Below are positions 1 through 21,063 of a DNA stretch of 64,000 nt, piece after piece (within the stretch, counting starts at the first letter, position 1; the number at the start of each line of letters is the position of its first letter). The translations under genes and the position numbers were made by a program. The notes below the pieces were generated by a model. It worked only from the letters and a program-made list of their open reading frames with translations. It ran no database searches and was not told where the DNA came from. Origin of the DNA: Ascidia mentula (lineage: Eukaryota; Chordata; Ascidiacea; Phlebobranchia; Ascidiidae); contig OX387201.1 in NCBI GenBank assembly GCA_947561715.1, forward strand, positions 20,722,001-20,786,000. The letters run 5' to 3'.

Positions 1-1110
1 CCCAACAGTTTTCAAGTTTCCCAGCGAAATGAACTTAACTACAGGTCACCCGTTGTGACGTCATTGAGCCCTTTACGCGCGTACAGACTGGCGACAAGGC
101 CTCTCATACAGGCGAACATTTGAAACCTTTCCGGGCCGTAGGATTTTTTTTATATTTTGCACAGAGCTTGCCTGGAGCATGCAGATGAACGCGGTATAAG
201 TTAAAATCCCAACAGTTTTCAAGTTTCCCAGCGAAATGAACTTAACTACAGGTCACCCGTTGTGACGTCATTGAGCCCTTTACGCGCGTCCAGGTTGGCC
301 ACAAGGCCTCTCATACAGGCGAACATTTGAAACCTTTCCGGGCCGTAGGATTTTTTTTAATTTTGCACAGAGCTTGCCTAAAGCATGCAGATGAATGTGG
401 TATAAGTTAAAATCCCAACAGTTTTCAAGTTTCCCAGCGAAATGAACTTAACTACATGTCACCCACTGTGACGACATAGAGCCCTTCACGCGCGTATAGG
501 CTGTGCACAAGGCCTCTCGTACAGGCGAACATTTGAAACCTTTCCGGGCCGTAGGATTTTTTTATATTTTGCACAGAGCTTGCCTAAAGCATGCAGATGA
601 ATGTGGTATAAGTTAAAATCCCAACAGTTTTCAAGTTTCCCAGCGAAATGAACTTAACTACATGTCACCCACTGTGACGACATAGAGCCCTTCACGCGCG
701 TATAGGCTGGCCACAAGGCCTCTCGTACAGGCGAACATTTGAAACCTTTCCGGGCCGTAGGATTTTTTTATATTTTGCACAGTGCTTGCCTGGAGCATGT
801 AGATGAACGCGGTATAAGTTAAAATCCCAACAGTTTTCAAGTTTCCCAGCGAAATGAACGTAACTGCAGGTCACCGGCTATGACGTCATTGAGCCCTTTA
901 CGCGCGTACAGACTGGCGACAAGACCTCTCATACAGGCGAATATTTGAAACCTTTCCGGGCCGTAGGATTTTTTTATATTTTGCACAGAGCTTGTCTGGG
1001 GCATGCAGACGAACGCGGTATAAGTTAAAATCCCAACAGTTTTCAAGTTTCCCAGCGAAATGAACTTAACTGCAGGTCACCGGCTGTGACGACATAGAGC
1101 CCAACAGTTA
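1..1110 (-). repeat. Left arm, outer part: 206-bp tandem repeat
   Basis: About 5.4 units of a 206-bp repeat, in reverse orientation relative to the right arm. Recognisable landmarks in every unit are CCCAACAGTTTTCAAG, a ggccgtagga followed by a T-rich run, and TTGCACAGAGCTTGCCT. Units differ by scattered substitutions. The array is cut by the window start and interrupted at about 1110 by a Penelope-like relic. Confidence 0.95.
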
Positions 1111-1156
1111 TTAAGTTGAAAACTAAAAATAGGTTTTGACCACCAGGTATCATAAT

Positions 1157-2021
1157 GAAATAGGAAAGTGACGTTCTTCTGGTAAAAAACAACAAATATA
1201 CACCTTTTGTTTAAATAAGATTAACTAAACAAATTTCCCGCTAACCTACATCTTACACCCCACACAAACATATACAGCATTCACTTCCATACCATATGTA
1301 CAGGGAGTTTCTGAGCGGATATCTAGAATACTCAACGCCACTGGAGTAAAAGTTGTTATGAAACCGGTGTGCACTTTAGAAAACATGTTTCCCAAAACCA
1401 AAGACCATATTTCCATGCTTCAAATGACCGGTGAAGTTTACTAAATGCCTTGTCTTGATTGTAACACTGTGTATATTGGCCAGATTAAGCGCAATTAAAC
1501 GTCCCGTATTAAAGAACACAAGGCAGCCATACGCAATATGGAACCCAATAAATCTGCTCTATGTGCTCACATGCTTGACACCGACCACCGTATCCATTGG
1601 AAGGAAGCTAAAGTATTTAAACAAGAAACAATTTTGGCAAAACGGTTGGTTGTGGAAAATTATTTTTTAATTCGCTGCCTAATGTGGTAAATCGCAGTGA
1701 TGGAAAAATACTCTCGCCCGTGTTCCGCAATTTCGCCCGTAACCATTCATGACATTTTGTTTCCTATGTTTGGCCTTTTGACCCGTGATCGATATTGTCC
1801 ATTCATTTATGTCCCGCTGTGTTTTAGCTGTTGCGGCCTTTTGTACTTTTTCGTCGCTGAATTTCTTTGCCCTTTGGTTCGCAATCGCTACTGTGATTGT
1901 TTTATTCTCTGAAGAATCCTAGTCGTACGTGCAGGCGAAACGTCAGAAAATACAATTTTTTTTTCAACAAAAGGTGTATATTTGTTGATATTGAGCCAGA
2001 AGAACGCCACTTCCATATTTC
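1157..2021 (+). mobile_element. Penelope-like retroelement relic inserted in the left arm
   Basis: This segment replaces the 206-bp repeat between about 1110 and 2022. It is bordered by imperfect inverted copies of about 50 bp (1157-1210 and 1965-2021, sharing TTCTTCTGG and CAACAAATATACACCTTTTG). Inside is a decayed GIY-YIG endonuclease reading frame. Near the 3' end, 1909-1943 resembles a decayed hammerhead ribozyme (CTGAAGA, a stem, then GCGAAACGTC), a motif known from Penelope-like elements. Only the 3' part survives; no reverse transcriptase is visible. The inverted flanks fit the rearranged terminal repeats common in this class. Confidence 0.7.
1299..1770 (+). pseudogene. Penelope-like GIY-YIG endonuclease fragment (broken)
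   Basis: Reading frame 1299 onward gives the usual approach to the Penelope endonuclease (a VSERISRIL segment, then CTLENMFPKTKDH), followed by PCLDCNTVYIGQ, TSRIKEHKAAIR and SALCAHMLDTDHRI. These match the GIY-YIG core: the CxxC-VYIG strand, the R-x-x-EHK helix and the conserved H-x-I segment. The frame has in-frame stops just before the MPCLDC segment and after QIKRN, and another at about 1689 where the continuation NRSDGKILSP lies in a different frame. In an intact element this domain nicks target DNA for insertion; this copy cannot encode a working enzyme. Confidence 0.75.
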
Positions 2022-2022
2022 A

Positions 2023-5000
2023 GTATTCAAGTTTCCAAACGAAATGAACTTAAATGCAGGTCAACGGCGGTGACGGCGTAGAGCCCTTTAAGCGTGTATA
2101 GGCTGGCCACAAGGCCTATCGTACAGGCGAACATTTGAAACCTTTCCGGGCCATGAGATTTTTTTAAATTTTGCACAGAGCTTGCCTGAAGCACGCAGAT
2201 GAACGCGGTATAAGTTAAAATCCCAACAGTTTTCAAGTTTGCCAGGGAAATGAACTTAACTGCAGGTCACCGGCTATGACGTCATAGAGCTCTTATCGCG
2301 CGTATAGGCTGGCCACAAGGCCTATCGTACAGGCGAACATTTGAAACCTTTCCGGGCCGTAGGATTTTTTTAAATTTTGCACAGAGCTTGCCTGAAGCAT
2401 GCAGATGAACGCGGTATAAGTTAAAATCCCAACAGTTTTCAAGTTTCCCAGGGAAATGAACTTAACTGCAGGTCACCGGCTATGACGTCATAGAGCTCTT
2501 ATCGCGCGTATAGGCTGGCCACAAGGCCTATCGTACAGGCGAACATTTGAAACCTTTCCGGGCCGTAGGATTTTTTTAAATTTTGCACAGAGCTTGCCTG
2601 AAGCATGCAGATGAATGCGGTATAAGTTAAAATCCCAACAGTTTTCAAGTATCCCATCGAAATGAACTTAACTGCAGGTCACCGGCTATGACGTCTTAGA
2701 GCCCTTAACGCGCGTATAGGCTGGCCACAAGGCCTATCGTACAGGCGAACATTTGAAACCTTTCCGGGCCATGAGATTTTTTTAAATTTTGCACAGAGCT
2801 TGCCTGGAGCATGCAGATGAATGCGGTATAAGTTAAAATCCCAACAGTTTTCAAGTTTCCCAGCGAAATGAACTTAACTGCAGGTCACCGGCTATGACGT
2901 CTTAGAGCCCTTAACGCGCGTATAGGCTGGCCACAAGGCCTATCGTACAGGCGAACATTTGAAACCTTTCCGGGCCATGAGATTTTTTTAAATTTTGCAC
3001 AGAGCTTGCCTGAAGCATGCAGATGAACGCGGTATAATTTAAAATCCCAACAGTTTTCAAGTTTCCCGGCGAGATGAACTTAACTGCAGGTCACCGGCTA
3101 TGACGTCATAGAGCTCTTAACGCGCGTATAGGCTGGCCACAAGGCCTATCGTACAGGCGAACATTTGAAATCTTTCCGGGCCGTAGGATTTTTTTAAATT
3201 TTGCACAGAGCTTGCCTGGAGCATGCAGATGAACGCAGTATAAGTTAAAATCCCAACAGTTTTCAAGTTTCCCAGCGAAATGAACTTAACTGCAGGTCAC
3301 CGACTGTGACGGCATTGAGCCCTTTACGCGCGTACAGGTTGGCGACAATGCCTATCGTACAGGCGAACATTTGAAACCTTTCCGGGCCATGAGATTTTTT
3401 TAAATTTTGCACAGAGCTTGCCTGGAGCATGTTGATGAACGCGGTATAAGTTAAAATCCCAACAGTTTTCAAGTTTCCCGGCGAGATGAACTTAACTGCA
3501 GGTCACCGGCTATGACGTCTTAGAGCCCTTAACACGCGCATAGGCTGGTCACAAGGCCTCTTGTACAGGCGAACATTTGAAACCTTTCCGGGCCGTAGGA
3601 TTTTTTTTAATTTTGCACAGAGCTTGCCTGAAGCATGCAGATGAACGCGGTATAAGTTAAAATCCCAACAGTTTTCAAGTTTCCCAGCGAAATGAAACAA
3701 CTGCAGGTCACCCGCTGTGACGACATAGAGCGCTTCACGCGCATATAGGCTGGCCACGAGGCCTATCGTACAGGCTAACAATTGAAACCTTTCCGGGCCG
3801 TAGGATTTTTCTTAATTTTGCACAGAGCTTGCCTGAAGCATGCAGATGAATGCGGTATAAGTTAAAATCCCAACAGTTTTCAAGTTTCCCAGCGAAATGA
3901 ACTTAACTGCAGGTCACCGGCTATGACGTCATAGAGCCCTTTACGCGCGTACAGGTTGGCCACAAGGCCTCTCGTACAGGCGAACATTTCAAACCTTTCC
4001 GGGCCGTAGGATTTTTTTTAATTTTGCACAGAGCTTGCCTGAAGCATGCAGATGAACGCGGTATAAGTTAAAATCCCAACAGTTTTCAAGTTTCCCAACG
4101 AAATGAACTTAACTGCAAGTCACCCTCTGTGACGACATAGAGCGCTTCACGCGCATATAGGCTGGCCACAAAGCCTCTCGTACAGGCGGACATTTGAAAC
4201 CTTTCCGGGCCGTAGGATTTTTTTTAATTTTGCACAGAGCTTGCCTGAAGCATGCAGATGAACGCGGTATAAGTTAAAATCCCAACAGTTTTCAAGTTTC
4301 CCAGCGAAATGAAACAACTGCAGGTCACCCGCTGTGACGACATAGAGCGCTTCACGCGCATATAGGCTGGCCACGAGGCCTATCGTACAGGCTAACAATT
4401 GAAACCTTTCCGGGCCGTAGGATTTTTTTAAATTTTGCACAGAGCTTGCCTGGAGCATGCAGATGAATGCAGTATAAGTTAAAATCCCAACAGTTTTCAA
4501 GTTTCCCAGCGAAATGAAACAACTGCAGGTCACCCGCTGTGACGACATAGAGCGCTTCACGCGCATATAGGCTGGCCACGAGGCCTATCGTACAGGCTAA
4601 CAATTGAAACCTTTCCGGGCCGTAGGATTTTTTTTAATTTTGCACAGAGCTTGCCTGGAGCATGCAGATGAATGCAGTATAAGTTAAAATCCCAACAGTT
4701 TTCAAGTTTCCCAGCGAAATGAACTTAGCTGCAGGTCACCGGCTATGACGTCTTAGATCCCTTAACGCGCGTATAGGCTGGCCACAAGGCCTATCGTACA
4801 GGCGAACATTTGAAACCTTTCCGGGCCGTAGGATTTTTCTTAATTTTGCACAGAGCTTGCCTGAAGCATGCAGATGAACGCGGTATAAGTTAAAATCCCA
4901 ACAGTTTTCAAGTTTCCCAGCGAGATGAACTTAACTGCAGGTCACCGGCTATGACGTCATAGAGCTCTTAACGCGCGTATAGGCTGGCCACAAGGCCTAT

Positions 5001-5250
5001 CGTACAGGCGAACATTTGAAACCTTTCCGGGCCGTAGGATTTTTTTAAATTTTGCACAGAGCTTGCCTGGAGCATGCAGATGAACGCGGTATAAGTTAAA
5101 ATCCCAACAGTTTTCAAGTTTCCCGGCGAGATGAACTTAACTTGACGGCAGGTCACCGGCTGTGACGACATAGAGCCCTTTACACGCATAGGCTGGCCAC
5201 AAGGCCCTTGCACAGGCAAACATTTTACACCTTTACGGGCCTGTAGGAGA
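2023..5250 (-). repeat. Left arm, inner part: 206-bp tandem repeat
   Basis: About 15.7 units of the 206-bp repeat in reverse orientation. Units here are more diverse than in the right arm: some carry a short deletion (gaaatgaaacaactgcagg) and some carry TACAGGCTAACAATTG instead of TACAGGCGAACATTTG. The inner edge decays near 5220-5250, where the ggcc(g)taggattt motif gives way to unique DNA. Confidence 0.95.
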
Positions 5251-5688
5251 AGATTGGCTGACGATAAATTGGTTAAGATGGCAGTTTATCACTTAATTGC
5301 ATTTGAGGTGGGCGAATGGTATCATCGGCCAAGGTGTCCTAAGTGTATGACAAGCTAAAAACCTCAAAATTCTTGCCAATGAAGCGTTAAAAAATAGTTA
5401 CAATTCAATAATCTGTCAGAAAATACAACAATAAGAAGCCGTCAGGTTTGATTTGTACTGTTAATGAAAAAAATATGATTCAGCAACCAATTAAGATCCA
5501 TCGCATTTCACATCAACCTATCATTTTTATTTACAGAAAACTGCTATTTATCAACTTGCTGAATAACGAAAAGATCGAAGCCGCAACTGTGTGAAACCAT
5601 CCGTACCCGACGAGCTCATTACGTAAATTTCTTAACCACCAACGACACTGCTGTGTATAACGACGAAAGACCGTAGTCGCAATCGACG
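5251..5688 (+). promoter_or_regulatory. 5' flank of the transposon gene
   Basis: Single-copy DNA between the left arm and the first ATG of the transposon gene. It presumably holds the promoter and 5' untranslated region, but no clear TATA box or other element can be pinned down by eye. No coding sequence is recognised in it. Confidence 0.35.
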
Positions 5689-6453
5689 ATGGGAAGAAGA
5701 ACGCCGCCCAAGAAATATAAAGTTGGAGTTTCCGGAAAGCAGACATGTTACCTCCGTGCTGAGGGGTCGCCGCTTCCTTCCGTGTTGTTGGTGACCGACA
5801 GCAACGGGAGGAACATTGTCTGCCCCCAGGTGGTATCGTCGGATAGTGAACTTTTTACGTTAAGTGCTATTTCTATTCCAGGGGGAACACTGAACCATGG
5901 AGCGGAGGAACTCATGTACGGGAAAAGGTTCGGGTCAGTTGATTGTATCATTCTGGCTCTTGGTACGAACGACTTGGTCTCTCGGCATGCGGATCACCAC
6001 CATAGCAGTATCGGGACCGATTTTCGACATCTGATCGAGGTGTGCCAACAAACGTACCCACAGTCTCAGGTTGGTTGCCTGTATTATACAAAAGTGCAGT
6101 TTGTTCCTGTTACTGCCAGGAGTTAAACTACATTTTTTCCCTGCTGCGACTGTAACGTTAAAATTAACTTCATTTATAACACATATACATTTTTTTTTGT
6201 ATAATTTGTATGCAGATTGTGATGGCTGGGATCTTGCAACAGTCTGGTTTTCATGAACACTGCGTCCAACAAGCCAATTGGGTACTGCACAACCTTGCCG
6301 AGGAATATGGGCTCACCTTCTTGGATTTTAATATCTCCAACGACAAAGATAATTGGAGCGACCAACTCCATCCCTCGGACGTAGGGCTGCGCCATTACAT
6401 GGACAGCCTGGAAGGGCATATCCATACTTTACTGGCTGTGGAACATCTTATTG
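5689..6453 (+). other. SGNH/GDSL hydrolase domain of the transposon gene
   Basis: Exons 1 and 2 give the blocks of an SGNH hydrolase: block I VTDSNGRN with nucleophile Ser38, block III LALGTNDL with Asn94, and block V SDQLHPSDVG with Asp176 and His179. The spacing (about 56 residues from Ser to Asn, 85 to the Asp-x-x-His) fits small esterases of this fold. The intron at 6070-6215 lies between blocks III and V, so the domain only works when spliced. SGNH domains are known in ORF1 proteins of CR1-type retrotransposons, where their role is unclear; here one sits in a DNA transposon. The substrate cannot be told from sequence. Confidence 0.75.
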
Positions 6454-9400
6454 GTACAGAAAATAAAACAATTGCTTTAAAAAGTCCAGTTCAATTAGGA
6501 AATTACCGAAATACCTTTCGTATTACAAGATTGTGGCGTAACTTCTTGGTTTACATAATGTTGATACGAAACTAAAAATACGATTTGACGAAGTGTACTA
6601 TTTTTTATGTCAGTTAAACAAAACTTTGATCAACAATGAAGTTTTTTGTTGCACAGTACCAACAACATTCATTGTACCTTCCTCACAACCAACTCCAAAC
6701 GACATTTCCCACATCAGTCAGTCATGTAACGGACGGAAAAAGTACAAACGCCTCAGCCTTTTCGGATCCGTCGCTGACTATATACGACCTAACAATTTGA
6801 AGAAAGTGCTGCATTCTTCAGTGAGCTCACTCACACCTTGTCCGTTACGACTTCACGTCAAACCTGCAGTTCGTGGTTCGTCTGCAAAGGCTGTGACAAC
6901 TCAAAGCCGAGTCGACAATGAAGCTGCGACGAGTTCGTCAGCTAAAGCAGTTCGACGTTCGTCTGCAAAGGCTGCGACAACTCAAAGCCGAGTCGACAAT
7001 GAAGGTGCAACGAGTTCGTCAGCTAAAGCAGTTCGACATTCGTCTGCAAAGGCTGCGACAACTCAAAGCCGAGTCGACAATGAAGGTGCGACGAGTTCGT
7101 CAGCTAAAGCAGTTCGTGGTTCGTCTGCAAAGGCTGCGACAACTCAAAGCCGAGTCGACAATGAAGCTGCGACGAGTTTGTCAGCTAAAGCAGTTCGACG
7201 TTCGGCTGCAAAGGCTGCGACAACTCAAAGCCGAGTCGACAATGAAGCTGCGACGAGTTCGTCAGCTAAAGCAGTTCGACGTTCGTCTGCAAAGGCTGCG
7301 ACAACTCAAAGCCGAGTCGACAATGAAGGTGCGACGAGTTCGTCAGCTAAAGCAGTTCGTGGTTCGTCTGCAAAGGCTGCGACAACTCAAAGCCGAGTCG
7401 ACAATGAAGCTGCGACGAGTTTGTCAGCTAAAGCAGTTCGACGTTCGTCTGCAAAGGCTGCGACAACTCAAAGCCGAGTCGACAATGAAGGTGCGACGAG
7501 TTCGTCAGCTAAAGCAGTTCGTGGTTCGTCTGCAAAGGCTGCGACAACTCAAAGCCGAGTCGACAATGAAGCTGCGACGAGTTTGTCAGCTAAAGCAGTT
7601 CGACGTTCGTCTGCAAAGGCTGCGACAACTCAGAGCCGAGTCGACAATGAAGCTGCGACGAGTTCGTCAGCTAAAGCAGTTCGACATTCGTCTGCAAAGG
7701 CTGCGACAACTCAAAGCCGAGTCGACAATGAAGCTGCAACGAGTTCGTCAGCTAAAGCAGTTCGACATTCGTCTGCAAAGGCTGCGACAACTCAAAGCCG
7801 AGTCGACAATGAAGCTGCGACGAGTTCGTCAGCTAAAGCAGTTCGTGGTTCGTCTGCAAAGGCTGCGACAACTCAAAGCCGAGTGGACAATGAAGCTTCT
7901 CGCGCAGCAGGAAAGTTATTTGGATTTGTGTTTGATGGCTTTAAACGAGGTATTTACACTATTTTCAGTTTTTGTATATTCTATCTGTTTTTTATGCAAT
8001 ACTGCCTGTGTTCAATTGGGTTTGGATATATTTTTGATTTCGCGTTGAGCAGTTCTACGTTTGTCCCCGGTTTTCGTCTGACAATTTTCAGCGGCTTAAC
8101 AACTCGAAAACGCCGTATTCGTGGTTCGGTTTTACTATTACCATTGTCGCTGGCTGCACGTTTAGTACAAACTGGGGGAGCTAAGTTTCAAAGTTGTGAT
8201 GAAAAAGTTGACATGATTTGTAAACATTTGGTTTTTCGTGGATTGAAAAAGTTTTGCAGAAAGACTGGTTTAGGTTTTCTGCATTCCCATGATTTTTGGC
8301 AGGGAATGCCAAATAACAGGCGACTCAAAAAGCTTCTGAAATTTTGTGAGGTTTATGACAAGGAAATACAAAAGAAGTTGGTTGGACGCTTGGTTCGTTC
8401 CCCTCATATTCCGACCCACCATAAGGAAAATATGTTTTACGCCGCAGTACCATCTTTAGTTAAGTGCCTACGTGAATACCCTAACACATCAAAGCTACCA
8501 AACAAGGCCGTGAAAGAAGTTTTGAAATATTGCAAACTTCCATTAAATGAAAAAAACCGGTTAAAAGTAAAAATGACTTGGGTTGAAGATATTTTGTTTC
8601 GTAAAATGGCACAATCGTTTTACAAACAACGTAATGGTTTGGAAACATCGCTCATGTCATCACCAGAACCTCTTACGCCACGCGGTGAGCCCTTGTTCTG
8701 TGTTTGCAACGCGCCCTACGATGGCACATTAATGGTGGAATGTGAAACTTGTCAGCAGTGGTTTCATCCGAGTTGCGTGTTTGAAAAATCGTCCGTGGCT
8801 GTATCTTTAACAGAAAAACAATGGAGACGGTCGCATTTGGTTTGCCCTGGCTTTGATTTGTACTCTGAATCTTGTTTTGTACATAGGTCTCTAAAGCCCG
8901 ATTATTTGGCTCCAGGTGATGATAAGACTGTGAAAGGTAAAACAAACCAAGATATGGTTGATAAAAGCACGTTTCAATCGTCGTCTTCTGGTCTTGACTT
9001 TCAATCGCCTGCTGTAGGTCCATCGGTCGCATTTTCACCGGCTTTCCCAGCACCTTCGTCGGCTGCATACACTTCAGAAATTGCACGCAATAGTTTAGGA
9101 GATAAGATACCGGCAATTATTACCAGGGATTTGGGTGATCAAAACAACGACATAAATTTGTTTTCCAAATCGCAGGAAAACTTTGATGTGGTAAGCGAAC
9201 TAGGTGGAATAAGTTTCGAAACACAAAATAAGTTTCAACATACAGCTGATGTCGCAATAGATGATGTTTTCGTTTTTTCACTTCAGGAATGGACAACAAT
9301 TATTCAAAATAGATCCGCAAATCACTTTGGCAATGATACGTACGTTGATGTAACTGTAAGGCGCCTTCGCAAAATTTACTCTGGTTGTGTCCCGAACGTA

Positions 9401-12400
9401 TCCAACAATTACTTGGTTAACTTCAACGCTGTGAAGAATATTAAGAAATCTGACGAATGTTACAAAGAAGGTTGGGTTAACTTCTATTGTGCACATAAAA
9501 GATGTGAGAGTTGTATGTGTGAGGTAAAATTTGTAGTGACGTTTTGGTCGTTTGTGGACAAAGTTGAAGGTCGTGTGAAGATATGTGGGAAAAGAAACCA
9601 TCACCGCGCTTGTAAAAAATGTAGACGTGTAAGTGGACTAATGAGGGAAGGACTTCGCAAAAAAATGCAGCATCAAACTGCAGTGAAACAATATCGCGAA
9701 ATGTTTGACAAATTATCGCCAGAAGAACGTTGGTTAGGGGCATGTACGTACTTACCCTCGCAATCAGTTTTAAACAACATTAAAAGTGAACACAGTGGCA
9801 GCAAACGAATAAGCGATTCATGGTTTTTAAATTTAAATCTACAGCGACTGCAAATGGATGAAAAGTTTATTCGTTGTATTTCGGCGCATTTTCCTATGGT
9901 GGCAATGTATTCCGACGCACAGATAAAAATTTTTAATCGCGTGTGCGCGTTTGATATTGCGTATTTTGATTCTACCGGCAGTGTGCTGCGCCGAATTGAA
10001 AACTATTCTAATTTTCAAGTGTACACCTTACTAATTCGAAATCCAACTAAAGGTGGTGCACCACTTCCGGTTGCAACTTGCGTGACATCAAAGCATGATG
10101 CGATCACTATTAGTCATTTTTTGGAAACCTTTCTCTCCGATTGTCTTAAAGTGTGTAGTGTGTCTCGAAAACCCAAACTGCTTATCATTGATGGCTCGAT
10201 GGCAATGTGGAACGCTGTTTTAAAGGCATTTTGTCGGGAAACTCGTATAGAATTTTACAACAGGTGTTATCGAATTTTAACAGGCGTTCCAGAGCATGGC
10301 GATTTGCAGAAAACTGTGGTCCATAATTGCTACAGCCATGCAATGAAAGCAGCCAAAATTTTATGCAACAAACACTGTCAAAGTTCAAAATTGTTGAAGA
10401 CTTATTTGTTCTGGTTAAACATATTTTTTAATTGCGAGAATTTTACGGATCTAGATATGGCTGTGGAAAGTTTTATTGTTTTGACTAACAGTGAAATTCC
10501 TTCCTCATTAGTCGAATTTCATTACAACCGCTTGAAATCCAAAGGTGCGTCCGGTAAATTCAATTTTGATGACACTGACGACGACAAGGGTGTGGCAGGG
10601 CACACAGATTATGTTTTTTCGAGTAAAGAAACAGATAAATTACAGGAAAAACAGTCCCCATTTTTTATTCGATACAAACGGAAATTAGAAAACTTTTTGA
10701 AAACATGTTCCAAGACACCAACCTCTTCACATATTGGCGCCAATGTTTATTACAATCCGAAATTGTGTGAACGTTTGATAGATGTGGTTTTAAGCAGAAT
10801 ATGTTCAACCTCTAAGTTAATGCTTGGGGATTTGTCACGGCATTTCCACGACAGCAAATCCACCAACGAACAGGCCAACATGTTTAATACGTACTCGAAA
10901 GATTGCAATGTGATAAAGAGTTGCCTCCACCAAACAATCCTTCACAATAACAAAACACAAGGAATTATTGAGGAACATTTTCGAGATTTGAAACGAAACA
11001 TAATTGATGGAAAGCGAATAGCTCGAATAGACGATTTTGCTTTAAAATACTATGATGCCATTAAAGTTTTGCAAAAACTGTTTGCCGATTCGTTAATGAG
11101 CTTTCGTGGAAAAGCGAACAAATCCCCTTCAAACCCAAGCAAAACTGAAACCGCCAAGCGTACATTGGTTGTGGAGTCAAAGTTTAAAAAGAGGAAAAGA
11201 AACAAAACTAGTTTTTATTCATCAGAAGTCATAAGTAAACGCTTAAAATACGAAAACGAAAAATCACTTTCTCCGCAACCAGTGTTAACACTTAAGTGCA
11301 CCCCGACAATGTCATTTTTTACAAACTGTCCAAAACAAAATGAAAATTTTCACGACTGTAAGAAAATTGCAGAGTTCATTTGGCATCATATACCTTTTAC
11401 CCCAACTTCAATTTTTGACACCGCCCTCGTCATGCTCTGTCATCAGTCAGTTTCTTGGTTAGATTTGTGTTCCCTTTGCAGTAGACCTCGTGGAAAAACT
11501 TATTGTGCTTTAACTCAAAACCCGGCGAAAACACACAGTGACTTGACAATTGGTTGGCTAACGGAAAACGTTGTAGATTGTTATATTTCAAGAACTCTCC
11601 GTCGTTGTAATTTGCGCATGCCTGGGACGTTTGGTTTTGTGTCAAGTAGGACAGCGGGAGAAGTGTTGCGTGGCAAAGAGTTCAAAAGTAATCGCAGAGC
11701 ATTTCATACCTTGTTTTGTAATGAACGGTTGGTTAAACACGCATTTATTCCATTACTTTATGAAGGCCATTTTGTTGTTTTGTGGTTAAAACATTTTGAG
11801 AATGAATTGGTTTTCTATGATTCTGCCGGAACTCCGCGAAAGGAACTTACGTCTCTGATAAAAAGATTTTTAATTCCAATTTTAATTTTAATTACCGGTC
11901 ATGATATTTATCTTAAATCTGATTCATTGGTGACTCAATGCGATTTGTCCAGTTGTGGTGTGTGTGTGTGTTTCACTGTGGACAAAATAGCAAACAATAT
12001 AGTTGGGATTGATGAGATTGAGTTCGACGTTGCACGGTATCGTATTTGGATTGTGTTTGCGCTTGTTCAGGAATCGATGAGTTGCAGTGATAAAATAGTT
12101 TCTTGGATTGTTAAAAGCAAGCTAGTTTTGCCTGGTCTTCCCAATTTATACAACAACTGTTGGTTAAATTCCGTGCTGCAAGCTGTTCAATGTTTGTTAG
12201 ATGACACTTGTATTTTTCCAAAAGAAACTGACATAAAAGGTAAAATTGGCCAATTTGTTTATCACCTAGCTCATAAACTTGTCGATTCCACGTCATACTT
12301 GCAGTTGGTAAAAGACGTTTGTTGTCTGCTTAGTTTTAAGTTAGGTCAGCAGCAGGACCCTATTGAATTTTTAATGCTAATTGATTTTGTTTCCGTTTTG

Positions 12401-13585
12401 AAAAGTTGTGGTCTGTATTCGTCGTTTAATTATAATACAGCAACAACTTGCAAGACATGTGGCAACCAGGAGAAATTTGAGAACGAGCAATCTGTACTGA
12501 CATTGCCGTTGTTCGATCACATCCCGGACAACGGCCATCTCAGCACATATTGTGAAACTGAGTTTCACAACGTTGCCACCAGCCGCTGTTCACATTGCAA
12601 TTTGAATACGGAGAAGACGATTAGTAGTGAGATCAAAAGTCCAAAAGATGTTTTGTGCATTGCAGTTTTTAGAAATGTAGGCGGCAAAAAAAGTAGTAAG
12701 CGCATTGTCCCAGATGAATTTTTGCCTGTTTCAAATGGAGTAATGTTTAGGCTTGTGTCTGTTATTGTTCACATAGGATCTGCTGTTACCTCGGGTCATT
12801 ATTTGGCATATAAATTTTCTCAAGAAAATTTGACAGAATACAATGACGATATAGTGAAATATGTGACATGGAACAGCGTAAAAGAAAGGGTATTTACTAG
12901 TAGTTGCATTTTTTATTATAAGAAAGTCAAGTCCGATAATCAGTCTCCCAGTTCACCTCAGCCAAAGATTGTTGTCCATCGCAAACCGCGCCGTTTCAAC
13001 GAGGCAGCAGCGAAATCTACGGATCGCATTATACACAGAAATTTTCTTCTTGAACAATACAATGATGGAAGAAGTATTGTAATTTCGGATGATACGAAAT
13101 TGACCCCCGCAATAAAACAATCATATGACTTCGTTTATAAACAAATTAATGGGATTTTGTCAAAATCTTTTGAGCAAGGAAAAGATCTACCGGAATGTTA
13201 CCGCCTATGTTTATATTACCATGGAAAAAAAAATGTGTTGATAAATTACAATAAACACTTTTCACACCTTAAAATCTCCCAAGATGAAATGAGCAATATA
13301 ATGCGATTCGTTGAATACTCGTTTTGTCGTCGTCTCGTGCGACAACGACTTGTTGGTAGTCAGGTTTTCCGGGAATCGTTTTGCGACCGTGATTTGAAAC
13401 CAGATTTGATTGTGCAAGGAAGCATGATCAGTGAGATGTTGAAAGATGAGACACTGAATTTTAATTTTTTTTTTAATAACATTTTGTACTTTGAGGCATT
13501 AATTGGTTATTTTATGAGTGTGGGTAACAGTGCCTACGAGGAAACATGTAGAAGGGTCGGTTCTAAACCATCGCTTTATATTTAA
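5689..13585 (+). CDS. Multidomain transposase: SGNH - PHD - DDE - ULP1 - USP fusion
   Basis: Predicted as three exons, 5689-6069, 6216-6453 and 6657-13585, about 2,515 residues. Both introns (146 and 203 bp) have GT..AG ends and join the frames exactly: phase 0 after CAG at 6069, and phase 1 from 6453 into the acceptor after TTGCACAG at 6656. The first ATG has a good context (cgacATGG). Order: SGNH hydrolase (1-200), 27-residue repeats (about 278-620), PHD finger (888-945), CxxC/His cluster (1150-1196), DDE transposase (1311, 1385, 1645), basic patch KFKKRKRNK (about 1716), ULP1-like protease (1911-1973), USP-like protease (2041-2254) and an unrecognised C-terminal 240 residues. No internal stop in 6.9 kb implies recent function. 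The superfamily is uncertain; MULE-like or KDZ-like are the nearest guesses. The second intron is inferred and could be absent, giving two proteins. Confidence 0.7.
6870..7895 (+). repeat. 81-bp coding tandem repeat (27 residues, about 13 copies)
   Basis: About 13 copies of an 81-bp unit encode a low-complexity Ser/Ala/Lys/Arg-rich 27-residue repeat with the core SSAKAV and TTQSRVDNE. Variants alternate between RRSS, RHSS and RGSS. As 81 is a multiple of three, copy gain or loss keeps the frame. The repeat is basic and probably disordered, so a linker or nucleic-acid binding role is plausible. The +1 frame is also open through the repeats (6918-8048), which is a consequence of the unit length and not evidence of a second gene. 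Confidence 0.95.
7940..8680 (+). other. Hydrophobic stretch and helical region of the transposon protein
   Basis: The frame first crosses an AT-rich, strongly hydrophobic segment (IFSFCIFYLFFMQYCLCSIG) and then an unrecognised, Lys-rich, probably helical region up to the PHD finger. The hydrophobic part looks like a retained intron (GTATTT at 7950, TTTTCAG at 8091), but removing those 142 bp would break the main frame. Either the segment is translated, or the true splice sites differ. No domain is recognised in the helical part. Confidence 0.5.
8684..8875 (+). other. PHD-type zinc finger
   Basis: Residues 888-945 of the predicted protein read FCVCNAPYDGTLMVECETC, then QQWFHPSCV and a later CPGF. 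The order C-x-C, C-x2-C, W-F-H-x2-C and a last Cys is the PHD pattern. The final Cys pair is not clear by eye. PHD fingers read histone tails, so this may direct integration or link the protease domains to chromatin, which is an inference. Confidence 0.75.
9445..11090 (+). other. CxxC/His cluster and DDE transposase core
   Basis: A Cys/His cluster (FYCAHKRCESCMC to HHRACKKC, residues about 1150-1196) precedes an RNase-H-like core. The probable catalytic residues are Asp1311 in YFDSTGS, Asp1385 in LIIDGSMAMW and Glu1645 in GIIEEHFRDLK. A CYSH motif lies between the second Asp and the Glu, as in MULE, P and hAT-type transposases with an inserted helical domain. The ending RIARIDDFALKYYD fits the common R-x-D-x-F tail of such animal transposases. 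The superfamily cannot be fixed by eye. Confidence 0.7.
11370..12050 (+). other. ULP1-like (C48) cysteine protease domain
   Basis: The full catalytic set of SUMO-type proteases is present with the right spacing: His1911 in EGHFVVLWL, Asp1928 in VFYDSAG, Gln1967 in VTQCDLSS and Cys1973 in SSCGVCVC (Gln to Cys six positions, as in ULP1). ULP1 domains occur in Zisupton, some MULE and some CACTA transposons. The intact residues suggest it is active. Its target, SUMO or the element's own polyprotein, is unknown. Confidence 0.82.
12120..12930 (+). other. USP-like (C19) ubiquitin protease domain
   Basis: The Cys box GLPNLYNNCWLNSVLQ contains catalytic Cys2041 and the usual Asn before it. It is followed by QQQDPIEFL (the family's QQDAxEFL), a CxxC pair (TTCKTC) and a second (RCSHC) that would bind zinc in the fingers, and the His box VIVHIGSAVTSGHYLAYKF with His2254. 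A late W-N-S-V-K segment and FYYKK ending match the last strand of USP folds. The domain is somewhat shorter than typical USPs. It follows the ULP1 domain in the same frame with about 65 residues between the two active-site cysteines. Confidence 0.85.
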
Positions 13586-14145
13586 AAATGCAAAGTAGAA
13601 ACGGGCACGGTTGTTATTTTGATTTATTGGTTAATCTCAGTATACTGGGCAATAAGCAGTGTTACCCGGGTCGACACTGTATAGACAAGGTTTAAATTTT
13701 CCCGCTACAGAGACCCCGCCCACCATACGTTAATTAAGGAATCCATTCACATATTTTTTATATAATTATATATAATTATTATATTAATTAATTATATTTG
13801 TGTTTGCCGTAACGATATTTTAGAGTAATTATATTTTTTTGATTCAAGTCAGTTCTTTTCTTCATTTGGATACACTTGCGTCCAAATGTTGTTTTATCTG
13901 CAAAATAAAACCACTACGATTGCCGGAACCTTGACGTGGTGTAGTGGCTTTGTACCAATACCGGCACTTACTAAAACAAATCGTATCAATCACCACTAAA
14001 GCAAAGAGAGGCAATGTCCATTAAGTCATGCTTTTTTTTTGATACTTGGAACATACCGATAACCTTTGTTAACGCCTTCGTTAACGCCTGAAAGTTATGT
14101 TTAAGCCATGTCGCTAGCGTATACGAGGGCAATAGACTCTATCTT
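13586..14145 (+). other. 3' flank of transposase gene with polyadenylation signal
   Basis: Non-coding, very AT-rich DNA between the stop codon and the right arm. An AATAAA at 13904-13909 on the forward strand is a plausible polyadenylation signal for the transposase mRNA. The stretch 13755-13800 is a TA/AAT-rich run able to fold on itself. No gene is seen. Confidence 0.5.
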
Positions 14146-17100
14146 ATACCGCGTTCATCTGCATGCTCCAGGCAAGCTCTGTGCAAAATAAAAAACAATT
14201 CTACGGCCCGGAAAGGTTTCAAATGTTCGCCTGTACGGGAGGCTTTGTGGCCAGTCTATATGCGCGTGAAGCGCTCTATATCGTCACAGAGGGTGACTTG
14301 CAGTTAAGTTCATTTCATTGGGAAACTTGAAAACTGTTGGGATTTTAACTTATACCGCGTTCATCTGCATGCTTCAGGCAAGCTCTGTGCAAAATTAAAA
14401 AAAATCCTACGGCCCGGAAAGGTTTGAAATGTTCGCCTGTACGAGAGGCTTTGTGGCCAACCTGTACGCGCGTAAAGGGCTCTATGACGTCATAGCCGGT
14501 GACCTGCAGTTAAGTTCATTTCGCTGGGAAACTTGAAAACTGTTGGGATTTTAACTTATACCGCGTTCATCTGCATGCTTCAGGCAAGCTCTGTGCAAAA
14601 TTAAGAAAAATCCTACGGCCCGGAAAGGTTTCAATTGTTAGCCTGTACGATAGGCCTCGTGGCCAGCCTATATGCGCGTGAAGCGCTCTATGTCGTCACA
14701 GCGGGTGACCTGCAGTTGTTTCATTTCGCTGGGAAACTTGAAAACTGTTGGGATTTTAACTTATACCGCGTTCATCTGCATGCTTCAGGCAAGCTCTGTG
14801 CAAAATTAAAAAAAATCCTACGGCCCGGAAAGGTTTCAAATGTTCGCCTGTTCGAGAGGCTTTGTGCACAGCCTATACGCGCTTAAAGGGCTTTGTGTCG
14901 TTATAGCCGGTGACCTGCAGTTAAGTTCATTTCACTGGGAAACTTGAAAACTGTTGGGATTTTAACTTATACCACGTTCATCTGCATGCTTCAGGCAAGC
15001 TCTGTGCAAAATTTAAAAAAATCCTACGGCCCGGAAAGGTTTCAAATGTTCGCCTGTTCGAGAGGCTTTGTGCACAGCCTATACGCGCGTAAAGGGCTCT
15101 ATGTCGTTATAGCCGGTGACCTGCAGTTAAGTTCATTTCGCTGGGAAACTTGAAAACGGTTGGGATTTTAACTTATACCGCGTTCATCTGCATGCTTCAG
15201 GCAAGCTCTGTGCAAAATTAAAAAAAATCCTACGGCCCGGAAAGGTTTCAAGTGTTCGCCTGTACGAGAGGCCTTGTGGCCAACCTGTACGCGCGTAAAG
15301 GGCTCTATGTCGTTATAGCCGATGACCTGCAGTTAAGTTCATTTCGCTGGGAAACTTGAAAACTGTTGGGATTTTAACTTATACCGCGTTCATCTGCATG
15401 CTTCAGGCAAGCTCTGTGCAAAATTAAAAAAAATCCTACGGCCCGGAAAGGTTTCAAATGTTCGCCTGTTCGAGAGGCTTTGTGCACAGCCTATACGCGC
15501 TTAAAGGGCTTTGTGTCGTTATAGCCGGTGACCTGCAGTTAAGTTCATTTCACTGGGAAACTTGAAAACTGTTGGGATTTTAACTTATACCACGTTCATC
15601 TGCATGCTTCAGGCAAGCTCTGTGCAAAATTAAAAAAAATCCTTCGGCCCGGAAAGGTTTCAAATGTTAGCCTGTTCGAGAGGCTTTGTGCACAGCCTAT
15701 ACGCGCGTAAAGGGCTCTATGTCGTTATAGCCGGTGACCTGCAGTTAAGTTCATTTCGCTGGGAAACTTGAAAACTGTTGGGATTTTAACTTATACCGCG
15801 TTCATCTGCATGCTTCAGGCAATCTCTGTGCAAAATTAAAAAAAATCCTTCGGCCCGGAAAGGTTTCAAATGTTCGCCTGTTCGAGAGGCTTTGTGCACA
15901 GCCTATACGCGCGTAAAGGGCTCTATGTCGTTATAGCCGGTGACCTGCAGTTAAGTTCATTTCGCTGGGAAACTTGAAAACTGTTGGGATTTTAACTTAT
16001 ACCACGTTCATCTGCATGCTTCAGGCAAGCTCTGTGCAAAATTAAAAAAAATCCTACGGCCCGGAAAGGTTTCAAATGTTCGCCTGTACGAGAGGCCTTG
16101 TGGCCAACCTGTACGCGCGTAAAGGGCTCTATGTCGTTATAGCCGATGACCTGCAGTTAAGTTCATTTCGCTGGGAAACTTGAAAACTGTTGGGATTTTA
16201 ACTTATACCGCGTTCATCTGCATGCTTCAGGCAAGCTCTGTGCAAAATTAAAAAAAATCCTACGGCCCGGAAAGGTTTCAAATGTTCGCCTGTACGAGAG
16301 GCCTTGTGGCCAACCTGTACGCGCGTAAAGGGCTCTATGTCGTTATAGCCGATGACCTGCAGTTAAGTTCATTTCGCTGGGAAACTTGAAAACTGTTGGG
16401 ATTTTAACTTATACCACGTTCATCTGCATGCTTCAGGCAAGCTCTGTGCAAAATTTGAAAAAATCCTACGGCCCGGAAAGGTTTCAAATGTTCGCCTGTT
16501 CGAGAGGCTTTGTGCACAGCCTATACGCGCGTAAAGGGCTCTATGTCGTTATAGCCGGTGACCTGCAGTTAAGTTCATTTCACTGGGAAACTTGAAAACT
16601 GTTGGGATTTTAACTTATACCACGTTCATCTGCATGCTTCAGGCAAGCTCTGTGCAAAATTAAAAAAAATCCTACGGCCCGGAAAGGTTTCAAATGTTCG
16701 CCTGTTCGAGAGGCTTTGTGCACAGCCTATACGCGCGTAAAGGGCTCTATGTCGTTATAGCCGGTGACCTGCAGTTAAGTTCATTTCGCTGGGAAACTTG
16801 AAAACTGTTGGGATTTTAACTTATACCGCGTTCATCTGCATGCTTCAGGCAAGCTCTGTGCAAAATTAAAAAAAATCCTACGGCCCGGAAAGGTTTCAAA
16901 TGTTCGCCTGTACGAGAGGCCTTGTGGCCAACCTGTACGCGCGTAAAGGGCTCTATGTCGTTATAGCCGATGACCTGCAGTTAAGTTCATTTCGCTGGGA
17001 AACTTGAAAACTGTTGGGATTTTAACTTATACCACGTTCATCTGCATGCTTCAGGCAAGCTCTGTGCAAAATTAAAAAAAATCCTACGGCCCGGAAAGGT

Positions 17101-20100
17101 TTCAAATGTTCGCCTGTTCGAGAGGCTTTGTGCACAGCCTATACGCGCGTAAAGGGCTCTATGTCGTTATAGCCGGTGACCTGCAGTTAAGTTCATTTCG
17201 CTGGGAAACTTGAAAACTGTTGGGATTTTAACTTATACCGCGTTCATCTGCATGCTTCAGGCAAGCTCTGTGCAAAATTAAAAAAAATCCTACGGCCCGG
17301 AAAGGTTTCAAATGTTCGCCTGTACGAGAGGCCTTGTGGCCAACCTGTACGCGCGTAAAGGGCTCTATGTCGTTATAGCCGATGACCTGCAGTTAAGTTC
17401 ATTTCGCTGGGAAACTTGAAAACTGTTGGGATTTTAACTTATACCGCGTTCATCTGCATGCTTCAGGCAAGCTCTGTGCAAAATTAAAAAAAATCCCAAG
17501 GCCCGGAAAGGTTTCAAATGTTCGCCTGTTCGAGAGGCTTTGTGCACAGCCTATACGCGCTTAAAGGGCTTTGTGTCGTTATAGCCGGTGACCTGCAGTT
17601 AAGTTCATTTCACTGGGAAACTTGAAAACTGTTGGGATTTTAACTTATACCACGTTCATCTGCATGCTTCAGGCAAGCTCTGTGCAAAATTTAAAAAAAT
17701 CCTACGGCCCGGAAAGGTTTTAAATGTTCGCCTGTTCGAGAGGCTTTGTGCACAGCCTATACGCGCGTAAAGGGCTCTATGTCGTTATAGCCGGTGACCT
17801 GCAGTTAAGTTCATTTCGCTGGGAAACTTGAAAACTGTTGGGATTTTAACTTATACCGCGTTCATCTGCATGCTTCAGGCAAGCTCTGTGCAAAATTAAA
17901 AAAAATCCTACGGCCCGGAAAGGTTTCAAATGTTCGCCTGTTCGAGAGGCTTTGTGCACAGCCTATACGCGCTTAAAGGGCTTTGTGTCGTTATAGCCGG
18001 TGACCTGCAGTTAAGTTCATTTCACTGGGAAACTTGAAAACTGTTGGGATTTTAACTTATACCACGTTCATCTGCATGCTTCAGGCAAGCTCTGTGCAAA
18101 ATTAAAAAAAATCCTACGGCCCGGAAAGGTTTCAAATGTTCGCCTGTTCGAGAGGCTTTGTGCACAGCCTATACGCGCGTAAAGGGCTCTATGTCGTTAT
18201 AGCCGGTGACCTGCAGTTAAGTTCATTTCGCTGGGAAACTTGAAAACTGTTGGGATTTTAACTTATACCGCGTTCATCTGCATGCTTCAGGCAAGCTCTG
18301 TGCAAAATTAAAAAAAATCCTACGGCCCGGAAAGGTTTCAAATGTTCGCCTGTACGAGAGGCCTTGTGGCCAACCTGTACGCGCGTAAAGGGCTCTATGT
18401 CGTTATAGCCGATGACCTGCAGTTAAGTTCATTTCGCTGGGAAACTTGAAAACTGTTGGGATTTTAACTTATACCGCGTTCATCTGCATGCTTCAGGCAA
18501 GCTCTGTGCAAAATTAAAAAAAATCCTACGGCCCGGAAAGGTTTCAAATGTTCGCCTGTTCGAGAGGCTTTGTGCACAGCCTATACGCGCTTAAAGGGCT
18601 TTGTGTCGTTATAGCCGGTGACCTGCAGTTAAGTTCATTTCACTGGGAAACTTGAAAACTGTTGGGATTTTAACTTATACCACGTTCATCTGCATGCTTC
18701 AGGCAAGCTCTGTGCAAAATTTGAAAAAATCCTACGGCCCGGAAAGGTTTCAAATGTTCGCCTGTTCGAGAGGCTTTGTGCACAGCCTATACGCGCGTAA
18801 AGGGCTCTATGTCGTTATAGCCGGTGACCTGCAGTTAAGTTCATTTCACTGGGAAACTTGAAAACTGTTGGGATTTTAACTTATACCACGTTCATCTGCA
18901 TGCTTCAGGCAAGCTCTGTGCAAAATTAAAAAAAATCCTACGGCCCGGAAAGGTTTCAAATGTTCGCCTGTTCGAGAGGCTTTGTGCACAGCCTATACGC
19001 GCTTAAAGGGCTTTGTGTCGTTATAGCCGGTGACCTGCAGTTAAGTTCATTTCACTGGGAAACTTGAAAACTGTTGGGATTTTAACTTATACCACGTTCA
19101 TCTGCATGCTTCAGGCAAGCTCTGTGCAAAATTAAAAAAAATCCTACGGCCCGGAAAGGTTTCAAATGTTCGCCTGTTCGAGAGGCTTTGTGCACAGCCT
19201 ATACGCGCGTAAAGGGCTCTATGTCGTTATAGCCGGTGACCTGCAGTTAAGTTCATTTCGCTGGGAAACTTGAAAACTGTTGGGATTTTAACTTATACCG
19301 CGTTCATCTGCATGCTTCAGGCAAGCTCTGTGCAAAATTTAAAAAAATCCTACGGCCCGGAAAGGTTTCAAATGTTCGCCTGTACGAGAGGCCTTGTGGC
19401 CAACCTGTACGCGCGTAAAGGGCTCTATGTCGTTATAGCCGATGACCTGCAGTTAAGTTCATTTCGCTGGGAAACTTGAAAACTGTTGGGATTTTAACTT
19501 ATACCGCGTTCATCTGCATGCTTCAGGCAAGCTCTGTGCAAAATTAAAAAAAATCCTACGGCCCGGAAAGGTTTCAAATGTTCGCCTGTTCGAGAGGCTT
19601 TGTGCACAGCCTATACGCGCTTAAAGGGCTTTGTGTCGTTATAGCCGGTGACCTGCAGTTAAGTTCATTTCACTGGGAAACTTGAAAACTGTTGGGATTT
19701 TAACTTATACCACGTTCATCTGCATGCTTCAGGCAAGCTCTGTGCAAAATTTAAAAAAATCCTACGGCCCGGAAAGGTTTCAAATGTTCGCCTGTTCGAG
19801 AGGCTTTGTGCACAGCCTATACGCGCGTAAAGGGCTCTATGTCGTTATAGCCGGTGACCTGCAGTTAAGTTCATTTCGCTGGGAAACTTGAAAACTGTTG
19901 GGATTTTAACTTATACCGCGTTCATCTGCATGCTTCAGGCAAGCTCTGTGCAAAATTAAAAAAAATCCTACGGCCCGGAAAGGTTTCAAATGTTCGCCTG
20001 TACGAGAGGCCTTGTGGCCAACCTGTACGCGCGTAAAGGGCTCTATGTCGTTATAGCCGATGACCTGCAGTTAAGTTCATTTCGCTGGGAAACTTGAAAA

Positions 20101-20203
20101 CTGTTGGGATTTTAACTTATACCGCGTTCATCTGCATGCTTCAGGCAAGCTCTGTGCAAAATTAAAAAAAATCCTACGGCCCGGAAAGGTTTCAAATGTT
20201 CGC
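14146..20203 (+). repeat. Right arm: 206-bp tandem repeat with higher-order structure
   Basis: About 29.4 units of the 206-bp repeat in forward orientation. From about 15000 on, three unit types recur: A (GTACGAGAGGCCTTGTGGCC, GCCGATGACC), B (ACGCGCTTAAAGGGCTTTG, TTTCACTGGG) and C (GTTCGAGAGGCTTTGTGC with GCGCGTAAAGG). They often run A-B-C, a 618-bp higher-order repeat, with some A-C, B-C and C-C steps. Units of one type are nearly identical even when kilobases apart, which shows recent array turnover. The first three units next to the gene are more like left-arm units. The 69- to 83-residue open frames in it have no coding meaning. Confidence 0.95.
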
Positions 20204-20484
20204 CTATATCAAGCGACTTCTCCACTTTATGCTTTGTTTAAGTTCGCATCCAAATTCACAAGTATTGCTGCCTCAGTATATACATTTTGCGAAAACAAAA
20301 TAGTGTGACTTGATCATGGAGGTGTACCAAAGTTACATTGATGTTTTTGAATGGTAATTATGCTCTAATTTGTGTATATACTTGTGTTTTGTTTTTGTTA
20401 AATCCATTGAAGTTGTGTTCAGTCATGCGTGAAAAATATTTCGTTGATATAAAAAAAAATTTCGCCGAAATGACAGAAGTCTGA
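20204..20484. other. Spacer outside the right arm
   Basis: Unique AT-rich DNA between the outer edge of the satellite arm and the start of the duplicated cysteine-protease block. No coding sequence or repeat is recognised. If the transposon's true tip and target duplication lie beyond the last 206-bp unit, they should be here. Confidence 0.5.
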
Positions 20485-21063
20485 AAAGTCATCATTCATT
20501 TGTTTTTCTGAGTTTCCATTTTTTCCTAAAAACGTGACTTGGCACTGGACAGATAGGGGATTTCCCAATTTGTTAAAATAATGACGTCAGTGTTTTTTTG
20601 ATGATCAGAAAAGGTTGTGCTTCAGGGGCCGTTTTCTGACGCCATAAAAATTTAGGGATTTTTGTAAGGCCATAATTTCATCTGTTTTTTTTTTCAATAT
20701 CAATACATTTTCCAAACAGAAATAAAAAAGAATTTTGTGTCCGAAGATTGCGGAACCTTCCCTTAACGCGAAACATAGACTGTACGATTCAAGTTACGCC
20801 TCAACTACTATGCAAAATGTAACGGTTACGATCCAATGAAACTAAACACGCCCAGTCTCCTCGCAACCAGCATTCAGTTGTTTTAGTGTGTAGTATTTTG
20901 CTGATTCACTGAAGGTTTGTAAGGGTTAGTATTTGTTACTAGGATTGTTTTTGCTGACTTCGCGAGCAATCGGTAAAGAAAACCCGAAACTCTGGCTTAT
21001 TGTGAGTTGGGCAGGGGTCTACTTTCATATTGAACTGAGAAAACGTTATGCGGAAACGTTTTG

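What the first reader, a model, noticed from the sequence alone, without database searches (positions are those of the whole stretch)
5689..13585. One predicted protein joins SGNH hydrolase, PHD finger, DDE transposase, ULP1 and USP
Two GT..AG introns with matching phases (0 and 1) fuse the upstream SGNH frame to the 6.9-kb frame, giving about 2,515 residues. Each domain keeps its key residues. I know of no described transposase with this set, so this is the best candidate for a new system in the window.
Basis: partly seen in the sequence, partly recalled or inferred. Interest (0 to 1): 0.92.

Follow-up and report, generated by a model that had tools for sequence, protein, structure and literature searches.

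The report
Large transposon encoding five-domain giant protein
A 22-kb jumping gene, apparently from the sea squirt Ascidia mentula, seems to encode one giant protein that joins a DNA-cutting transposase to an esterase-like domain, a chromatin-reading finger and two enzymes that strip SUMO and ubiquitin tags, a combination I did not find described.

Summary
Exons 5689-6069, 6216-6453 and 6657-13585 join in frame to 2,515 aa. The same two introns, with the same phases, are present in 8 of 8 SGNH-bearing copies read. Nearly all domain comparisons show purifying selection. SGNH, PHD and USP pass Pfam cut-offs. The ULP1-like part shows only by profiles over copies. The DDE core is only an invariant D-D-CxxH-E pattern; no transposase profile matches it.
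It is the core of a 22.3-kb DNA transposon with inverted arrays of a 206-bp unit, a 272-bp outer terminus and 8-bp target duplications in 11 of 12 pairs with both ends intact. At least 25 long copies exist. Additional finds: a conserved membrane-helix-like stretch, cassette exchange between subfamilies, and a subfamily without SGNH.
Closest known: Rehavkus/Mutator, foldback elements, and Ulp1/PHD-bearing Mutator and Ginger1. Membership is not shown (TSD 8 against 9 for Rehavkus; no MULE profile match). I file it as a new variant of a known kind, possibly a new superfamily. Transcription, fold and activity are untested.

The parts
1..20480 (+). DNA transposon, 22,293 bp in all (G000 C69:20720189-20742480); its left 1.8 kb lies outside the window
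   Evidence: TIR and TSD boundaries
1..5248 (+). left TIR array of 206-bp units (begins 1,541 bp outside the window); interrupted at 1103-2020
1103..2020 (.). insertion in the left array; looks by eye like a Penelope-like/GIY-YIG retroelement fragment
   Evidence: sequence; not searched
5689..6069 (+). exon 1 (SGNH residues 1-127)
6070..6215 (+). intron 1, phase 0, 146 nt
   Evidence: homologous position in 8 of 8 copies
6216..6453 (+). exon 2 (rest of SGNH)
6454..6656 (+). intron 2, phase 1, 203 nt
6657..13585 (+). exon 3 (repeats, membrane-like stretch, PHD, DDE, ULP1, USP, C-terminal part)
5689..6452 (+). SGNH/GDSL hydrolase domain (two exons); window residues S38, G65/G66, N94, D176, H179, motifs kept in 8 of 8 copies
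6866..7897 (+). 27-aa tandem repeats (81-bp period) inside the coding sequence
   Evidence: coding-repeat periods in the copies are multiples of 3
7949..8161 (+). membrane-helix-like hydrophobic stretch, recognisable in 6 of 9 copies
8693..8854 (+). PHD finger
   Evidence: 3.4e-6
9488..9613 (+). conserved Cys/His cluster before the DDE core (likely zinc-binding; inferred)
   Evidence: invariant C77, C82, C85, C87, H114, C118 of A1
9860..11120 (+). putative DDE/RNase H-like core: D at 9968, D at 10190, CxxH at 10328-10339, E at 10970
   Evidence: invariant in 9 of 9 copies; no family profile match
11180..11200 (+). basic KFKKRKR stretch, likely nuclear localisation signal
   Evidence: ESKFK[KR]RK in 9 of 9; function inferred
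11360..12109 (+). ULP1/C48 SUMO-protease-like domain (H 11768, D/N 11819, Q 11936, C 11954)
12110..12930 (+). USP/UCH deubiquitinase domain (C 12158, H 12797, D 12845, two CxxC)
12931..13582 (+). conserved C-terminal region, no domain recognised
14144..20208 (-). right TIR array of 206-bp units (inverted)
20209..20480 (-). outer right TIR, 272 bp, about 95% identical to the left end
20481..20488 (+). right copy of the 8-bp target-site duplication CTGAAAAG

Best explanation
This is an autonomous-type cut-and-paste DNA transposon with very long foldback-like TIRs. One spliced gene encodes a giant transposase. SHOWN by sequence: element ends with 8-bp TSDs, a multicopy family with short derivatives, a conserved three-exon gene structure, selection on the domains, and recombination between subfamilies. 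INFERRED: the DDE core (Mutator-like in motif layout) cuts at the outer TIRs and inserts with an 8-bp stagger; the 206-bp arrays offer accessory binding sites or a nucleosome-sized platform; the PHD finger tethers the complex to marked chromatin; the ULP1 and USP domains remove SUMO and ubiquitin from the transposase or from silencing and repair proteins at the site. The SGNH part, distantly similar to the esterase of a retrotransposon ORF1 protein, together with the membrane-like stretch, is an accessory module for membrane association or hydrolysis of an ester-linked group; one subfamily lacks SGNH, so it looks dispensable there.
For: Long TIRs with arrays at both ends; perfect 8-bp TSDs at different targets in 11 of 12 pairs with both ends intact; copies and shorter derivatives of 1.1 and 5.5 kb with TSD; gene structure in 8 of 8 copies read; dN/dS for SGNH, PHD, DDE, ULP1 and C-terminal part between 0.08 and 0.39 wherever computable; SGNH motifs kept in 8 of 8, D-D-CxxH-E, ULP1 H, Q, C and USP C, H, D invariant in 9 of 9; ULP1 and USP profiles; SGNH nearest PDB sequence is an ORF1-encoded protein, E 0.0012; subfamily without SGNH.
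Against: No transcript seen. The DDE core has no significant match to any transposase family (hhalign to local MULEs probability 1.4%). A membrane-like stretch in a nuclear enzyme is odd; by eye a phase-1 GT (7950) and AG (8165) flank it, so it could be spliced out in some transcripts. Three of 8 copies have an early ATG in exon 3. USP dN/dS is 0.40 and 0.66 in two pairs with few changes, and the N-terminal CFG part is 0.44-1.06. One of 12 intact pairs shows no TSD.
Confidence: 0.78

Rival explanations
1. Two genes in one transposon: a separate SGNH gene upstream, and a transposase gene that starts in exon 3.
For: A subfamily has exon-3-type frames and no SGNH match. SGNH is known as a passenger of fish Helitrons. 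In 3 of 8 copies exon 3 has an early ATG (codon 1, 22 or 43).
Against: No ATG in the first 400 codons of exon 3 in 5 of 8 copies, the window among them; intron 2 donor and acceptor phases stay compatible in 8 of 8; past the donor the copies diverge and show no shared stop in the about 20 codons printed (by eye).
Confidence: 0.17
2. It is simply a Rehavkus-type Mutator transposon with extra domains.
For: Rehavkus is described with a PHD finger and minisatellite; motif order D-D-CxxH-E resembles MULE (recalled); hhalign puts the second D in register with local MULEs.
Against: Rehavkus TSD is 9 bp, here 8; no PF10551 match in 9 of 9 copies although ordinary MULEs of the same genome match; hhalign not significant. 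No Rehavkus sequence was available for comparison.
Confidence: 0.45
3. A remote member of the KDZ (Zisupton) group.
For: 8-bp TSD as in Zisupton.
Against: No PF18758 match in 9 of 9 copies while other loci of the same genome match it.
Confidence: 0.07
4. Host gene family with tandem repeats, not a transposon.
For: Long open frames under purifying selection.
Against: TIRs, TSDs, 42 terminus matches and short derivatives.
Confidence: 0.02

Closest known systems
Rehavkus (Mutator-related; PMC6446971, passages and a table row seen)
   Same: PHD finger in the transposase; minisatellite near the end; one ORF
   Different: TSD 9 bp there, 8 bp here; TIRs 26-400 bp there, about 6-7 kb here; Ulp1 does not occur in that paper's main text (0 occurrences); SGNH and USP were not searched in it
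Mutator (MuDR) elements with Ulp1 of hydra, lancelet and plants (PMC2836005, passages seen)
   Same: Ulp1 encoded by the element; Mutator transposases figure in its Ulp1/PHD alignment (legend only seen)
   Different: SGNH, USP, membrane-like stretch and long arrays are not mentioned in those passages
Ginger1-9_HM (PMC2836005, table row seen)
   Same: Ulp1 and PHD in a transposase
   Different: Gypsy-type integrase core with YPYY and GPY/F; 3.8 kb, 120-bp TIRs
Foldback elements Tetris (PMC4079207) and Tm1 (PMC3169594), passages seen
   Same: TIRs of an outer part plus tandem repeats (about 220 bp in Tetris); TSD 8-10 bp
   Different: no transposase found for Tetris; Tm1 repeats are 13-15 bp
CR1 esterase and PHD domains (Kapitonov and Jurka 2003, seen only as a title in a reference list) and texim SGNH in fish Helitrons (PMC4021074, passages seen)
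   Same: SGNH in mobile elements; nearest PDB sequence of our SGNH is an ORF1-encoded protein
   Different: retrotransposons or Helitrons, not DDE transposons

Membership tests
TIR (DDE-type) DNA transposon | terminal inverted repeats and fixed-length TSD | tested here: met
   8 bp in 11 of 12 intact pairs; 16 pairs examined, 4 with a damaged end set aside
TIR (DDE-type) DNA transposon | DDE triad in an RNase H fold | tested here: inconclusive
   invariant D, D, CxxH, E in 9 of 9 copies; fold not tested (structure prediction off)
Mutator/MULE | MULE transposase profile PF10551 | tested here: not met
   0 of 9 members at E<=5; local MULEs do match
Mutator/MULE | TSD of about 8-11 bp (range recalled; 9-11 bp in the rows seen) | tested here: met
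   8 bp
Rehavkus | TSD 9 bp | tested here: not met
   8 bp
Rehavkus | PHD finger in transposase | tested here: met
Rehavkus | sequence kinship with Rehavkus transposases | not testable with these tools
   no Rehavkus sequence held
KDZ/Zisupton | KDZ profile PF18758 | tested here: not met
   0 of 9; other loci of the genome match
Foldback-type element | long TIRs with internal tandem repeats | tested here: met
Peptidase C48 (ULP1) | profile match and H-D/N-Q-C residues | tested here: met
   7 of 9 members, best 1.4e-4; SENP1 3e-6; residues; the window copy alone gave no Pfam hit
USP (C19) | UCH profile, Cys/His/Asp boxes | tested here: met
   9 of 9
SGNH hydrolase | GDSL profile and S, G, N, H residues | tested here: met
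   (8 of 8 copies)

The most novel reading that the evidence does not exclude
A new superfamily of eukaryotic DDE transposons, perhaps of tunicates, whose single polypeptide is a membrane-tethered precursor: an SGNH esterase and membrane helix on one side, a nuclear transposase with its own chromatin reader, SUMO protease and deubiquitinase on the other, released by cleavage, by alternative splicing of the helix, or anchored at the nuclear envelope. Subfamilies trade these cassettes by recombination.
Probability: 0.25. Interest if true: 0.8.

Novelty: new variant of a known kind. Interest (0 to 1): 0.62.

Why it matters
One transposon that keeps, under selection, a chromatin reader plus both a SUMO protease and a deubiquitinase would make the published suggestion that SUMO/ubiquitin removal helps transposition (PMC2836005) directly testable, domain by domain. 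The SGNH-less subfamily and the natural cassette swaps are ready-made comparisons. A membrane-like stretch in a transposase is unexpected. The arrays also offer a chordate case of satellite-like DNA inside a transposon.

Tried and rejected
Host gene: rejected by TIR/TSD data. Prokaryote, phage, plasmid or viral relatives of the DDE part: none found (only E=7 noise). Retained intron instead of membrane-like stretch: thought unlikely because the frame is open in all six copies that have it and dN/dS is 0.17-0.38 in the five sharing pairs for which dS could be computed (one, window-K2, near saturation; window-K70 gave no dS). It is 71 codons long, so this is moderate evidence, and phase-1 GT/AG sites do flank it in the window (by eye). 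Assignment of the DDE part by Pfam, NCBIfam, PHROGs and PDB profile: nothing. hhalign of A1 to four local MULEs: second D in register, E 0.036, probability 1.4%; reversed-MULE control E 0.29; unrelated A2 against MULE E 0.13; not significant. Shared motif between outer TIR and array unit: best E 0.56. The SGNH tally of 25 long copies (17 with a match within about 4 kb upstream, 7 without, 1 unclear) was made by hand; three of the 7 (C67:7.69, C70:3.36, C72:10.82) carry stops or are broken, so loss by damage is possible there.
Full report
WHAT IS THERE. Splicing 5689-6069, 6216-6453 and 6657-13585 gives a single frame of 2,515 aa. The window lies in a 195.8-Mb genome of 79 contigs. Nine large contigs (27.92, 19.88, 23.17, 22.72, 22.34, 21.17, 19.87, 19.66, 15.45 Mb) match the nine chromosomes of the sea squirt Ascidia mentula, kaAscMent1.1, to within 0.01 Mb. 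The totals differ slightly: the paper gives 197.0 Mb in 95 scaffolds. The window would be chromosome 5. The name is my inference from those lengths.

THE ELEMENT. The gene sits between two inverted arrays of a 206-bp unit: left to 5248, beginning 1,541 bp outside the window, and right 14144-20208. Outside the arrays lies a non-repetitive inverted terminus, 259 of 274 bases identical between ends, starting 5'-ACTKCTGTCATTTCGGCGAAA and followed by the 8-bp duplication CTGAAAAG. I examined 16 pairs of ends. In 12 both ends were intact, judged by eye; 11 of these show a perfect 8-bp duplication: window, C1:18.81, C72:12.09, C1:26.96, C73:1.16, C73:8.79, C67:0.43 (by eye), K72_4.75, K52_2.78, K71_17.1, K69_17.99 (K71 also allows a 10-bp reading). 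C2:17.60 shows none. Set aside for a damaged end: C1:19.97, C72:9.66, C73:14.7, K18.9. Copies whose DDE region is 66-91% identical to the window's keep the terminal core GTCATTTCGGCGAA and arrays of 187-206-bp units. Units of window, K72 and K52 are related (73-84% over the aligned parts), those of K71 and K69 to each other (74%), with no match between the groups. The element is 22.3 kb. Shorter elements with the same ends exist, for example 1.1 and 5.5 kb.

THE GENE MODEL. Intron 1 is at the homologous residue, phase 0, in 8 of 8 SGNH-bearing copies read, of 17 such copies tallied; lengths 55-171 nt. Intron 2 has a phase-1 donor and compatible phase-1 acceptors before a conserved [CL]FG[CS][VI] motif (chosen by eye). 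Exon 3 has no ATG in its first 400 codons in 5 of 8 copies, the window among them; K2_8.7, K69_17.99 and K52_2.78 have one at codon 1, 22 and 43. The repeats coded in exon 3 have periods of 81, 57, 54, 162 and 156 nt, all multiples of three.

DOMAINS. SGNH: Pfam 4.8e-10, motifs in 8 of 8, nearest PDB sequence an ORF1-encoded protein, E 0.0012 (to my recollection a zebrafish LINE ORF1 esterase). PHD: 3.4e-6, match ending at model position 37 of 47. A Cys/His cluster precedes the DDE core. DDE core: in the 9-copy alignment D237, D311, C357, H360 and E571 are invariant, but no transposase family in Pfam (one E=1.2 hit to an IS91 zinc-binding model in one member), NCBIfam or PHROGs matches and no PDB profile match is credible. 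ULP1: none for the window protein, 7 of 9 over the members, SENP1 at 3e-6 with H, D, Q and C aligned. USP: 9 of 9, best 3e-23, USP36 at 9e-19. A basic ESKFK[KR]RK stretch is invariant between DDE and ULP1.

NEW OBSERVATIONS. (a) A membrane-helix-like stretch (7949-8161) is recognisable in 6 of 9 copies, with dN/dS 0.17-0.38 in five pairs; it is absent in K71 and K69_17.99 and not recognisable in K69_11.2. (b) Copies are mosaics. K72_4.75 and K52_2.78 differ at 12% of same-residue codons in SGNH, 18-69% per window of exon 3 up to about residue 1620, then 2-11% (ULP1, USP, C-terminus). Window and K72 agree instead in residues 993-1652 of exon 3, which hold the DDE core (0-15%), and differ elsewhere in exon 3 (16-53%) (windows in the tandem repeats are poorly aligned). 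Trees conflict: DDE groups window with K72 (100), USP groups K72 with K52 (100), ULP1 and SGNH likewise (88 and 79) (7 sequences). (c) Of 25 long copies, a lower bound, 17 have an SGNH match within about 4 kb upstream, 7 have none, 1 is unclear (hand tally). The 7 include four copies (C70:19.4, C70:20.9, C69:8.2, C1:2.1) with the same 1,953-codon frame and nearly equal scores, not aligned to each other; so SGNH looks unnecessary for their spread, unless supplied by other copies.

SELECTION. dN/dS where dS could be computed: SGNH 0.10-0.25 (8 of 8 pairs), PHD 0.09-0.24, DDE region 0.10-0.19, ULP1 0.13-0.31, USP 0.15-0.66, C-terminus 0.08-0.39, N-terminal CFG part 0.44-1.06; several distant pairs were saturated and gave no ratio. 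The two high USP values (0.40, 0.66) come from pairs with very few changes.

MECHANISM. The best reading is cut-and-paste transposition with an 8-bp stagger by the DDE core. The arrays may serve as binding platforms, as discussed in print for Galileo and Tetris. Removal of SUMO and ubiquitin may protect the transposase or clear silencing and repair factors; a role of these pathways was proposed in PMC2836005. The SGNH role is the least certain: membrane passage was proposed for retroelement esterases. All these steps are inference.

COMPARISON AND NOVELTY. Rehavkus shares PHD and minisatellite but has 9-bp TSDs. MULE and KDZ profiles fail although both find other loci in the same genome. Ulp1 in Mutator and Ulp1+PHD in Ginger1-9_HM are known, and a Trichomonas transposase with a C19 peptidase is mentioned in the same paper. 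Searches: all four of transposase, Ulp1, PHD finger, SGNH, 0 papers; looser searches gave 37, 204 and 7 papers, of which 20, 20 and 7 were listed, and none of those listed looked like it by title, abstract start or the passages I opened. All papers were seen as listings or passages, none in full. The library lacks most subscription papers and Repbase was not searched, so 'undescribed' means not found there.

Noticed in passing
window 1103-2020: Insertion in the left array whose frame fragments resemble a GIY-YIG/Penelope-like retroelement tail (read by eye).
   Followed up: no
window 29287-30273 and 30315-31544, minus strand: ORFs of 329 and 410 aa; the first has a DUF4218 match below the curated cut-off (3.9e-5), as in CACTA-type elements (recalled).
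   Followed up: partly
own genome, 31 places (for example C70:3536478, C71:12131451): A remote SGNH family (25-44% identity, mostly residues 8-133 in one piece) in many places, perhaps retrotransposon ORF1 esterases.
   Followed up: no
left end of copy K18.9 (G000 C69 about 18926190, loci L013/L011): The copy abuts what looks like an inverted end of a K71-type element, as if one element inserted at the tip of another (by eye).
   Followed up: no
own genome, C69:12465382-12487404: Four MULE matches 6-8 kb apart on one strand, suggesting a tandem array of a MULE.
   Followed up: no
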